Of a DNA stretch of 64,000 nt, positions 15,860 through 37,200 are shown one piece after another. How positions within the stretch are numbered: position 1 is the stretch's first letter; every line of letters starts with the position of its first letter. Position numbers and translations under genes: made by a program. The stretch is from Rhodococcus sp. IEGM 1379 (lineage in GTDB: Bacteria; Actinomycetota; Actinomycetes; Mycobacteriales; Mycobacteriaceae): NCBI RefSeq assembly GCF_030056815.1, contig NZ_JASHKR010000023.1, positions 1 through 64,000 on the forward strand. The letters run 5' to 3'. Under the pieces are notes generated by a model. That model saw nothing but the letters and a program-made list of their open reading frames with translations. It ran no database searches and was not told the origin of the DNA.

Positions 15860-16017
15860 CGTTGCCAATCCTCCTCATATCCGAGAATCTCACGTTCGGA
15901 CATGGTCGCCGAAGTTGTGTGTCACTGGCCCGAGAACTGCCATCCCGGTTGCGTCAGCATAGAGTGCCGACAAATTGGGTCTGGGATCGGTTCCGAAGTT
16001 AATGTAACCTGACGTCC

Positions 16018-16074
16018 ATGGTCAGTTTTGTGCAGTACACGACGACGCCGGTTTTCTTCCGGCGCATCGATTAG
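16018..16074 (+). CDS. Putative threonine-rich leader peptide of the thrS-like gene
   Basis: An 18-codon ORF, MVSFVQYTTTPVFFRRID, ends 116 bases before the synthetase-like gene. It holds three consecutive threonine codons (ACG ACG ACG, 16039-16047). The bases just after these codons form a 6-bp hairpin (16046-16051 with 16059-16064), and an outer helix pairs 16020-16024/16032-16037 with 16076-16086, enclosing the Thr codons. A rho-independent-type hairpin follows at 16099-16122. This is the layout of ribosome-mediated attenuation: a shortage of charged Thr-tRNA would stall the ribosome on the ACG codons. A clear antiterminator pairing was not found by eye, and there is no strong Shine-Dalgarno. 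Confidence 0.55.
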   Translation: MVSFVQYTTTPVFFRRID

Positions 16075-16098
16075 CTACTGCTGACCGAACCCATTCCA

Positions 16099-16136
16099 GC
16101 CCCGGGAGTTATCGCCCGGGGCATTGTTATTTCTTG
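16099..16136 (+). terminator. Attenuator-type terminator upstream of the thrS-like gene
   Basis: A perfect 8-bp GC-rich stem (gccccggg, 16099-16106, with 16115-16122), an eight-base loop and then attgttatttcttg, which is T-rich. It lies between the leader ORF and the start codon at 16191, so read-through is needed to express the gene. Confidence 0.7.
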
Positions 16137-16190
16137 GGCGTGCGGCTCTGGGCGTGCGGCTCCCGGTTCATCCGAAACGGAGCATCCGCC

Positions 16191-17411
16191 ATGAGCCTCG
16201 ATCACCGTGTACTCGGACGCGAATTGGAACTGTTTGCCACTACTCCCGTCGTCGGCGCAGGCCTGCCGTTGTGGCTGCCCGACGGCGCAATCATCAGAAC
16301 TGAACTCGAAAAGCTGGCTGCCGAGGAGGCGGCCGGGTCCGGTTGCCGGGGCGTCTACACACCAGTCCTTGCGAAGAAGGAGTTGTACGAGCGTTCCGGC
16401 CATTGGTCCAAATTTTCCGAAGACATGTTTCCGGAGATGAAGATCGGCGGTGAGTCGTTCCTGTTGAGGCCTGCCAACTGTCCGCATCACGCGCAGATAT
16501 TTGCTGCGCGGGGACGCAGTTATCGAGAGTTGCCTTTTCGAGTCCGCGAACGCGGTTCGATGTTCCGAAGCGAACTGTCCGGGGTTCTCGGCGGGCTGAG
16601 TCGGGTGAGGCAGATCAATCTCGACGACGCACATGTCTTCTGTAGCCCCGCGCAGGTACAGGCGGAGGTGATGGTGGCACTCGACGCGATCGAGCGGTGC
16701 TACTCGATTCTGGGGATTTCGGACCGCGAGTATCGACTTTCGATCCGTGGGGCGGAGGGTCAGTACCTGCGTAGCGACAACCAATGGGCGGACGCGGAGG
16801 ACCAACTGCGTCGCGCATTGGCGGAGAGGTCGATCACCTACGTCGAAGCAAAGGGTGAAGCTGCCTTCTACGGCCCCAAGATCGATGTCCAGGTGCTCGA
16901 CGCGCATGGCCGGGAAGAAACTCTCTCGACCGTTCTGCTCGACTTCAACCAACCTGAGCGATTCGAGTTGGAGTACACCGTCGAGGACGGATCCAAGGCG
17001 CGCCCGATCATGATTCACCGTGGGCTGTTGGGTTCCATGGAGCGGATGACCGCACTGTTGATCGAACGGTTCGAAGGTCGGGCGCCGCCGTGGTTGGCGC
17101 CCAATCAGGTGTCGGTTCTACCGATCTGCGACGAGCATGTGGCAGCAGCTGAAGAACTTCGGTGCCGTCTCGCGGATCGTGGTGTGCGGGTTGTTGTTGC
17201 GTCGGGCGGATCGTTGGGGCGACGAATTCGTGAAGCTCGCACCCATCGGGATCCCTCTATCGCGGTGATCGGGGACAGCGAAATGCGTGACGCTGCAGTC
17301 AATGTTCTGTTGCCGGCGTGGGATCAGAAGTCAGGAGTTGATGCGGGAGTCTTTGTGGATCAGGTTGTTTCGGATATCTCGAGCAGATCGCTTACCCCGA
17401 GTGGGTACTAG
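16191..17411 (+). CDS. Threonyl-tRNA synthetase paralogue without TGS and editing domains
   Basis: A 406-aa class II aminoacyl-tRNA synthetase core from ATG 16191. Motif 1 lies near LPDGAIIRTELEKL, motif 2 is RERGSMFRSELSGVLGG, and motif 3 is IMIHRGLLGSMERM. The three zinc ligands of ThrRS are recognisable: Cys in PANCPHH, His in DDAHVFC and His in MIHRGLLGS. A C-terminal anticodon-binding domain follows (PNQVSVLPICDEH...). The N-terminal TGS and second-catalytic/editing domains of the normal 640-690-aa enzyme are absent, so mischarged Ser-tRNA would not be edited. It is likely an inducible second ThrRS used in threonine shortage or against a ThrRS inhibitor. The leader peptide and attenuator upstream support control by Thr-tRNA charging. 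Confidence 0.85.
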   Translation: MSLDHRVLGRELELFATTPVVGAGLPLWLPDGAIIRTELEKLAAEEAAGSGCRGVYTPVLAKKELYERSGHWSKFSEDMFPEMKIGGESFLLRPANCPHHAQIFAARGRSYRELPFRVRERGSMFRSELSGVLGGLSRVRQINLDDAHVFCSPAQVQAEVMVALDAIERCYSILGISDREYRLSIRGAEGQYLRSDNQWADAEDQLRRALAERSITYVEAKGEAAFYGPKIDVQVLDAHGREETLSTVLLDFNQPERFELEYTVEDGSKARPIMIHRGLLGSMERMTALLIERFEGRAPPWLAPNQVSVLPICDEHVAAAEELRCRLADRGVRVVVASGGSLGRRIREARTHRDPSIAVIGDSEMRDAAVNVLLPAWDQKSGVDAGVFVDQVVSDISSRSLTPSGY

Positions 17412-37049: not shown

Positions 37050-37200
37050 GTCAGCTTCACGAGATGCGGTGCCAAGCTCCGACTGGCCGCACACCAACCC
37101 CACTGGCGTTCCGGGGTGGTTCGGATGACGAAGCGGTCCGCACCGACCGGTACGGGCAAGAGCGCCCCCGTCCGTGGCGGGCCAAGCCGCAGGAGTTCGT
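37050..37200 (+). ncRNA. Structured 5' leader, riboswitch candidate (SAM-IV-like layout)
   Basis: The 179 bases before GTG 37202 hold several nested perfect stems. gcttc 37054-37058 pairs with gaagc 37130-37134 as a closing helix. Inside it tgcgg 65-69/ccgca 87-91 is stacked on cca 72-74/tgg 84-86 (last digits of 370xx), and acccc 37097-37101 pairs with ggggt 37113-37117. Further stems are cggtc 37134-37138/gaccg 37145-37149 and acggg/cccgt across 37152-37171. A GAG just after the first arm, a GGCCGCACACCAACC-type stretch and GGATGAC before the closing arm resemble the core of SAM-IV and SAM-I/IV-variant aptamers. Assignment to that family is tentative. Confidence 0.4.

What the first reader, a model, noticed from the sequence alone, without database searches (positions are those of the whole stretch)
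16018..16191. Threonine leader-peptide attenuator ahead of a stripped-down ThrRS paralogue
An 18-codon leader ORF carries ACG ACG ACG in a row. It is enclosed by a long-range helix (16020-16037 with 16076-16086) and followed by a GC-rich hairpin with a T-rich tail (16099-16136), 55 bases before a ThrRS-like gene that lacks TGS and editing domains. Ribosome attenuation is known in actinobacteria for trp, leu and ilv operons. I do not know of a described Thr-codon attenuator before a synthetase there. If the design is right, Thr-tRNA shortage or a ThrRS inhibitor would turn on an inhibitor-tolerant second enzyme.
Basis: partly seen in the sequence, partly recalled or inferred. Interest (0 to 1): 0.75.

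Follow-up and report, generated by a model that had tools for sequence, protein, structure and literature searches.

The report
Threonine-sensing switch before backup tRNA synthetase
A short decoy peptide rich in threonine codons, with mutually exclusive RNA hairpins behind it, very probably turns on a spare threonine-charging enzyme when charged threonine tRNA runs short, and the same switch recurs before this enzyme across actinobacteria.

Summary
An 18-codon leader (16018-16074, MVSFVQYTTTPVFFRRID) precedes an intrinsic terminator (16099-16122 plus T-rich tail) and a 405-aa ThrRS without editing domain. The switch: region 1 (16046-16051, in the last Thr and Pro codons) pairs with region 2 (16059-16064); region 2 (16056-16062) alternatively pairs with region 3 (16102-16108), which excludes the terminator.

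Of 62 short ThrRS among 80 named relatives, 61 carry the leader. Among 394 class genomes, 61 have this short ThrRS (E <= 1e-99) and 59 carry the element; the other two lie at contig ends. Antiterminator pairs form in 97.8% of cells. The leader is predicted leaderless. All 69 genomes with the short ThrRS that were checked also have a full-length thrS. Three genomes without it carry the element before full-length thrS.

Prior art: S. lividans thrL-thrS (2021, PMC8079986), termination 'not clear'. No Rfam match; no NCBIfam match for five leaders. Inhibitor tolerance is plausible, untested: borrelidin-pocket residues M332 and Q381 are replaced in 90 of 90 short sequences. No expression data exist for the window.

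The parts
16005..16010 (+). -10 hexamer TAACCT, 7 nt before the leader ATG; predicts a leaderless leader mRNA
   Evidence: TAnnnT 6-8 nt before the leader start in 71 of 71 loci (start chosen partly by this); background 106 of 4391 ATGs at 6-7 nt. The simple sigma-70 scan finds no consensus promoter.
16018..16074 (+). Leader ORF MVSFVQYTTTPVFFRRID, ACG ACG ACG at codons 8-10 (16039-16047)
16020..16026 (+). 5' arm of outer helix P1 (pairs 16080-16086)
   Evidence: own partner pairs better than swapped or shuffled partners over 99 elements
16046..16051 (+). Region 1 CGCCGG, inside the last Thr and the Pro codon; pairs with 16059-16064
   Evidence: 100% paired in 61 elements, 4 of 6 pairs never vary
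16056..16064 (+). Region 2 CTTCCGGCG: pairs with region 1 (16059-16064) or with region 3 (16056-16062)
16080..16086 (+). 3' arm of outer helix P1 (GCTGACC)
16099..16108 (+). Region 3: terminator 5' arm 16099-16106; antiterminator partner CCGGGAG 16102-16108
16115..16122 (+). Region 4: terminator 3' arm CCCGGGGC
16123..16132 (+). T-rich tail ATTGTTATTT of the intrinsic terminator
16179..16182 (+). GGAG, likely ribosome-binding site of the ThrRS gene
   Evidence: sequence
16191..17408 (+). Short ThrRS (ThrRS2), 405 aa, no editing domain
   Evidence: zinc ligands C334, H385, H511 (E. coli numbering; role recalled) kept

Best explanation
A classical ribosome-mediated transcription attenuator that senses Thr-tRNA charging and controls an auxiliary ThrRS. 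Shown by sequence and comparison: a conserved Thr-rich leader, predicted leaderless; three mutually exclusive pairings (1:2, 2:3, 3:4); an intrinsic terminator; an auxiliary ThrRS without editing domain beside a full-length thrS. Inferred: with enough Thr-tRNA the ribosome runs on to the stop codon, covers region 2, and terminator 3:4 forms. When it stalls on the Thr codons it covers region 1, so region 2 traps region 3 before region 4 is made, and transcription reads into thrS2. Without translation, P1 and 1:2 form and leave the terminator free. The product would add Thr-tRNA synthesis when the housekeeping ThrRS or the Thr supply fails.
For: Leader in 61 of 62 short ThrRS among 80 named relatives; the exception, L076, is a Levybacteria MAG. 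Element 30-265 nt upstream of the match in 59 of 61 short ThrRS (E <= 1e-99) in 394 class genomes; the other two lie at contig ends. 2:3 pairing in 97.8% of 364 cells, 6 double changes against 0.8 in shuffles. Extension of 2:3 beyond its core: 0 of 2000 shuffles reach the observed mean. With region 1 masked and the RNA ending just after region 3, P(2:3) > 0.5 in 58 of 59 elements (2 of 61 skipped); without a ribosome 1:2 > 0.5 in 55 of 59. Leaderless start predicted in 71 of 71 loci and reported from RNA-seq for S. lividans thrL (PMC8079986, passages). A divergent element (L171, sequence) keeps TTT, and by eye 1:2 (GACGGG/CCCGTC) and 2:3 (ACCCG/CGGGT), with other bases. Full-length thrS in 73 of 73 genomes checked.
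Against: Region 1:2 barely varies, so it gives no covariation. The six double changes in 2:3 sit at one pair; two other measures do not beat the shuffles; and with the partner slid by 1 or 2 columns 85.5% and 78.6% of cells still pair, because the arms are GC-rich. In the window at equilibrium with region 4 present, the terminator wins even with a stalled ribosome, and with the ribosome on the third Thr codon 2:3 is only 0.05; antitermination must be kinetic. U-tracts are weak in several elements. No expression data for this organism.
Confidence: 0.9

Rival explanations
1. Inducible inhibitor-resistance module: thrS2 is kept mainly to survive natural ThrRS inhibitors such as borrelidin, and the attenuator is the sensor of target inhibition. 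This adds a purpose to the best explanation.
For: M332 is A, S or G in 90 of 90 short sequences and M in 30 of 30 full-length ones; Q381 is L in 90 of 90 and Q in 30 of 30; L489 is Q in 89 of 90. Human M411, Q460 and L567 contact borrelidin, and changes at E. coli L489 (= L567) give resistance (PMC4389257, passages); M332 and Q381 as equivalents of M411 and Q460 are my mapping. Eight of 8 short ThrRS fetched from plasmid records carry the element, six of them on records of 122 kb to 1.8 Mb. The S. coelicolor WblC regulon lists a thrS2 (PMC7157823, passages); 30 of 106 leader promoters have GAAA 30-35 nt before the -10.
Against: Eight of 30 full-length enzymes also have Q at 489; a solved housekeeping ThrRS, 1nyq (Staphylococcus, recalled), has L at the 381 equivalent (alignment); Gly463 is unchanged in 90 of 90, so not the obafluorin route; the element also precedes full-length thrS in 3 genomes. 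No inhibition data.
Confidence: 0.35
2. A starvation or translation-stress supply valve, not resistance: ThrRS2 adds charging capacity at low Thr or in the WblC response, at the cost of Ser mischarging.
For: Same element before full-length thrS in G268, G404 and G381; WblC regulon listing of a thrS2 (PMC7157823, passages).
Against: Does not explain the consistent replacement of M332 and Q381.
Confidence: 0.45
3. Translational rather than transcriptional attenuation: the 3' hairpin acts on ribosome access to thrS2.
For: Weak U-tracts in some elements; the S. lividans authors found no uridine-rich sequence after the hairpin (PMC8079986, passages).
Against: In the window the hairpin ends at 16122, 56 nt before GGAG, and has a T-rich tail.
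Confidence: 0.08
4. Chance short ORF beside an ordinary terminator.
For: TTT occurs in 5 of 527 short ORFs of the window.
Against: Conservation.
Confidence: 0.01

Closest known systems
S. lividans thrL-thrS (SLIV_19412/19410), PMC8079986 (2021, passages)
   Same: Leaderless Thr leader (MKRVRPFLETTPGFVPAR) before a ThrRS gene; its TTPG...PAR ending resembles the TTTP...VPAR leaders found here
   Different: One species, two Thr codons, termination reported unclear, no alternative pairing or family described in the passages seen; that SLIV_19410 is a short ThrRS was not checked here
trpS/trpS2 and leuS attenuators in Streptomyces (PMC1262725, passages) and the S. coelicolor TrpRS1 system (Vecchione and Sello; its attenuation is recalled)
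   Same: Leader-peptide attenuation of an aminoacyl-tRNA synthetase gene in actinobacteria; TrpRS1 is an additional, indolmycin-resistant enzyme (PMC9437257, passage)
   Different: Other amino acid, other RNA; PMC1262725 reported no conserved structure for threonine operons
E. coli thr operon leader (recalled)
   Same: Thr-codon leader with overlapping hairpins and terminator
   Different: Controls biosynthesis, not a synthetase; mixed Thr and Ile codons
Anabaena thrS1/thrS2 (PMC4787780, passages) and P. fluorescens ObaO (PMC11252418, passages)
   Same: Second ThrRS induced by stress or conferring inhibitor resistance
   Different: Anabaena thrS2 is Zur-controlled; ObaO resistance uses a change at Gly463, which is kept here

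Membership tests
Classical ribosome-mediated transcription attenuator | Short leader ORF with conserved regulatory codons | tested here: met
   Thr-Thr in 61 of 61 named leaders, three consecutive Thr in 59 of 61 (L054 TTPP, L056 TTAP) (the search pattern itself asked for Thr-Thr)
Classical ribosome-mediated transcription attenuator | Mutually exclusive antiterminator and terminator | tested here: met
   the equilibrium fold of the complete leader favours the terminator in every state
Classical ribosome-mediated transcription attenuator | Intrinsic terminator with U-tract | tested here: met
   Window. A best downstream hairpin of -17.0 kcal/mol or better in 65 of 65 distinct elements, chosen by the script without a control; T in the next 8 bases varies from 0 to 6, and the hairpin of L050 was mis-picked
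Classical ribosome-mediated transcription attenuator | Amino-acid-dependent read-through | not testable with these tools
   needs reporter or term-seq
Rfam families | Match above gathering score | tested here: not met
   Only SAM-IV elsewhere in the window; none in 13 loci; one sub-threshold match in the leader (ncS037, 24.7 bits against 112)
T-box | Match to a T-box covariance model | tested here: not met
   none
Threonyl-tRNA synthetase | TIGR00418 above cut-off; zinc and catalytic residues | tested here: met
   434.3 bits against 383.65; C334, H385, H511, R363, R520 kept
Threonyl-tRNA synthetase with editing | tRNA_SAD domain | tested here: not met
   absent from the 405-aa protein; present in the genome's other ThrRS
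Borrelidin-resistant ThrRS (S. parvulus type) | Y/H/Y/T at the E. coli 312/461/488/489 equivalents (mapping partly mine) | tested here: not met
   window has K/F/N/Q

The most novel reading that the evidence does not exclude
thrL-thrS2 is an actinobacterial, partly plasmid-borne resistance cassette with two-layer control: WblC/WhiB7-type activation by general translation stress, and a Thr-tRNA attenuator that reports inhibition of the housekeeping ThrRS. It deploys an editing-less enzyme with an altered borrelidin pocket and accepts Ser-for-Thr mistranslation while induced.
Probability: 0.3. Interest if true: 0.78.

Novelty: new member of a known kind. Interest (0 to 1): 0.56.

Why it matters
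It turns a single listed S. lividans leader into a defined RNA family with a testable switch, found before 59 of 59 short ThrRS with enough upstream sequence in a 394-genome class survey (threshold E <= 1e-99), and not in Rfam. It suggests that a good number of actinobacteria keep a silent, editing-less ThrRS for moments when Thr-tRNA fails, and it names residues and a promoter box that make the resistance and WblC ideas testable.

Tried and rejected
Rejected: chance ORF; T-box or catalogued RNA; catalogued leader peptide (no NCBIfam or Pfam match for five leaders of 20-22 aa; shorter ones cannot be scanned). The outer helix as antiterminator: in the MFE it accompanies 1:2 and the terminator. 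Resistance by Gly463: the residue is unchanged. Weak model hits: six inspected hits of 32.8-35.5 bits in the class survey, and G608 C9 (36.1 bits) and G613 (34.6) in the phylum survey, have no ThrRS by tblastn; the remaining weak class hits (108 of 394 genomes matched at E <= 0.001) were not inspected. G201 at 35.2 bits and G608 C45 at 34.3 do precede ThrRS, so 36 bits is not a clean border.

Flaws in my own counts. mis-anchored four rows (L032, L037, L038, L052), which lowers the observed value. shuffles: 4 pairs with double changes against a mean of 2.7 (15 of 500 as high) and further pair types 70 of 500, so not decisive. The leader starts were chosen partly by the -10 spacing. The P1 probabilities printed used mis-set pairs and are not used. 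A first residue table used wrong frames for the full-length enzymes and was redone. The 90 short sequences (61 named, 29 by six-frame search) are not all independent genomes; the 61 were found with patterns that include the 488-489 stretch, the 29 were not. Thirteen of the 61 have open frames of more than 60 codons running upstream of the match; I take them as GC-rich chance, since leader and terminator lie there, but ran no profile on them. A1 holds 61 of 65 distinct elements (L006, L007, L009, L025 left out as near-copies), and the end of L050 was set by hand. The tree is FastTree only and dropped one of four short rows from outside the class for length. Pfam found no TGS domain in either piece of the genome's own full-length ThrRS, so 'lacks TGS' rests on the profile start. 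Two of the eight 'plasmid' records with a short ThrRS (L207, 5.7 Mb; L213, 11.85 Mb) are probably chromosomes. Whether S. coelicolor thrS2 of the WblC regulon is the short gene was not verified: SCO3778 is recalled, and that name is not in the main text read; sigma-E binds near SCO3778, called threonyl-tRNA synthetase (PMC10771440, passage).

Full report
Observation. A TTT run alone would not impress: 5 of 527 short ATG ORFs in the window have one.

Conservation. The genome scan kept the best 80 of 540 relatives. Leaders with Thr-Thr lie upstream in 61 of the 80. Eighteen of the other 19 have 182 or more in-frame codons upstream and are taken as full-length ThrRS; the last, L076 (a Levybacteria MAG), is a short ThrRS without the leader. 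So 61 of 62 short forms carry it, in Rhodococcus, Prescottella, Amycolatopsis, Kutzneria, Nocardioides, Kribbella, Promicromonospora, Actinomyces, Micromonospora, Geodermatophilus and others, and one Acidimicrobiaceae MAG. Three consecutive Thr codons occur in 59 of the 61; the peptide after them falls mainly into TTTP..(L/F)RR, TTTP..SGA and TTTP..VPAR types. In 71 of 71 loci (65 distinct elements) a TAnnnT hexamer lies 6-8 nt before the leader start, against 2.4% of ATGs at 6-7 nt in the same loci. This predicts a leaderless leader, as reported from RNA-seq for S. lividans (PMC8079986, passages).

Switch. Region 1 (CGCCGG, partly inside the last Thr codon) pairs with region 2; region 2 also pairs with the 5' arm of the terminator. 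Over 61 elements the 1:2 and terminator pairs form in 91.9% of cells and the antiterminator 2:3 in 97.8%, with six double changes against 0.8 in shuffles, all at one pair. Region 1:2 hardly varies. One element outside the class, L171, keeps TTT, and both alternative pairings can be read in it by eye with other bases (sequence). Folding with the ribosome footprint masked (14 nt ahead of the A site, my assumption) gives 2:3 above 0.5 in 58 of 59 elements once region 3 is out, and 1:2 in 55 of 59 without a ribosome; 2 of 61 were skipped. In the window the stalled fold gives 2:3 at 0.99, 0.82 and 0.05 for the first, second and third Thr codon; with region 4 present the terminator wins at equilibrium, so antitermination must be kinetic. 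The outer helix P1 pairs better with its own partner than with swapped ones over 99 elements (median -14.0 against -11.7 kcal/mol; elements are not independent).

Distribution. A covariance model was run on 394 genomes of the class, and the protein on the same 394. Short ThrRS at E <= 1e-99 occur in 61; 59 have the element 30-265 nt upstream of the match. In G319 the match starts at base 52 of its contig, and in G179 109 bases from the contig end. Of 63 class hits of 36 bits or more, 58 precede these genes, one (G115) a more diverged short ThrRS, three (G268, G404, G381) a full-length thrS, and one (G261) lies at a contig edge with no gene identified. Of 296 genomes of the phylum, hits outside the class at G569, G459, G646 and G608 (C45) precede ThrRS; G608 C9 and G613 do not. 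All 73 genomes checked have a full-length thrS, that of G000 split over two contig ends; 69 of them, G000 included, also show a short match starting at profile position 151-171; G268, G404, G381 and G261 do not. The short forms, 94 rows with three from outside the class, are one clade (support 100, FastTree). In the genus 10 of 28 genomes have it. Of 63 plasmid records with a ThrRS match I fetched nine: the eight short ThrRS carry the element, the one full-length copy does not; two of the eight records are probably chromosomes.

Enzyme. Catalytic and zinc residues are kept. Two residues that I map to borrelidin contacts, M332 and Q381, are replaced in 90 of 90 short sequences and kept in 30 of 30 full-length ones from 29 of these genomes; L489 is Q in 89 of 90, but also in 8 of 30 full-length ones. 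PMC4389257 (passages) names human M411, Q460 and L567 as contacts and E. coli L489 as a resistance site. Gly463, the obafluorin determinant (PMC11252418, passages), is unchanged. Tolerance is therefore a hypothesis.

Promoter. GAAA lies 30-35 nt upstream of the -10 in 30 of 106 distinct promoters, and in at most 3 for other six-base windows. The WblC consensus (GAAAWY, 3 nt, -35, spacer of 16-19 nt; PMC7157823, passages) implies 31-34 by my sum, and that paper lists a thrS2 as WblC-activated; its identity with the short gene was not verified. The window has ACAAATT there, not GAAA.

Prior work. PMC8079986 lists S. lividans thrL-thrS with termination unclear. PMC1262725 found no conserved threonine structure. 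PMC4833913, PMC2965389 and PMC9437257 showed no actinobacterial thrS attenuator in the passages searched. My ten paper searches covered open-licence PubMed Central only, so subscription papers may hold more.

Verdict. A real, conserved Thr attenuator with a defined antiterminator. The kind is known and one member had been listed; the family, its near-perfect tie to an editing-less ThrRS and the pocket changes appear new within those searches.

Noticed in passing
L154, L155, L156 (G268, G404, G381): The same TTTP attenuator precedes the full-length thrS in genomes in which no short ThrRS was found.
   Followed up: partly
upstream of the leader -10 in 30 of 106 distinct promoters, e.g. L109, L139, L143: GAAA box at the spacing of WblC/WhiB7 sites.
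   Followed up: partly
L203 (G383:C6): A second full-length ThrRS with Y, H, Y, T at the E. coli 312, 461, 488, 489 equivalents, the pattern given for the S. parvulus borrelidin-resistant enzyme (PMC4389257 passage).
   Followed up: no
window 37055-37168: SAM-IV riboswitch, 77.4 bits.
   Followed up: no
L206, L208-L212: Short ThrRS with its attenuator on plasmid records of 122 kb to 1.8 Mb: Mycobacterium intracellulare, Streptantibioticus, Kitasatospora and three Streptomyces.
   Followed up: partly
L076: Short ThrRS without the leader in a Levybacteria MAG.
   Followed up: no
window 16935-16937: The window enzyme has Leu (CTG) where E. coli Q484 and 90 of 90 other short sequences have Gln.
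   Followed up: no
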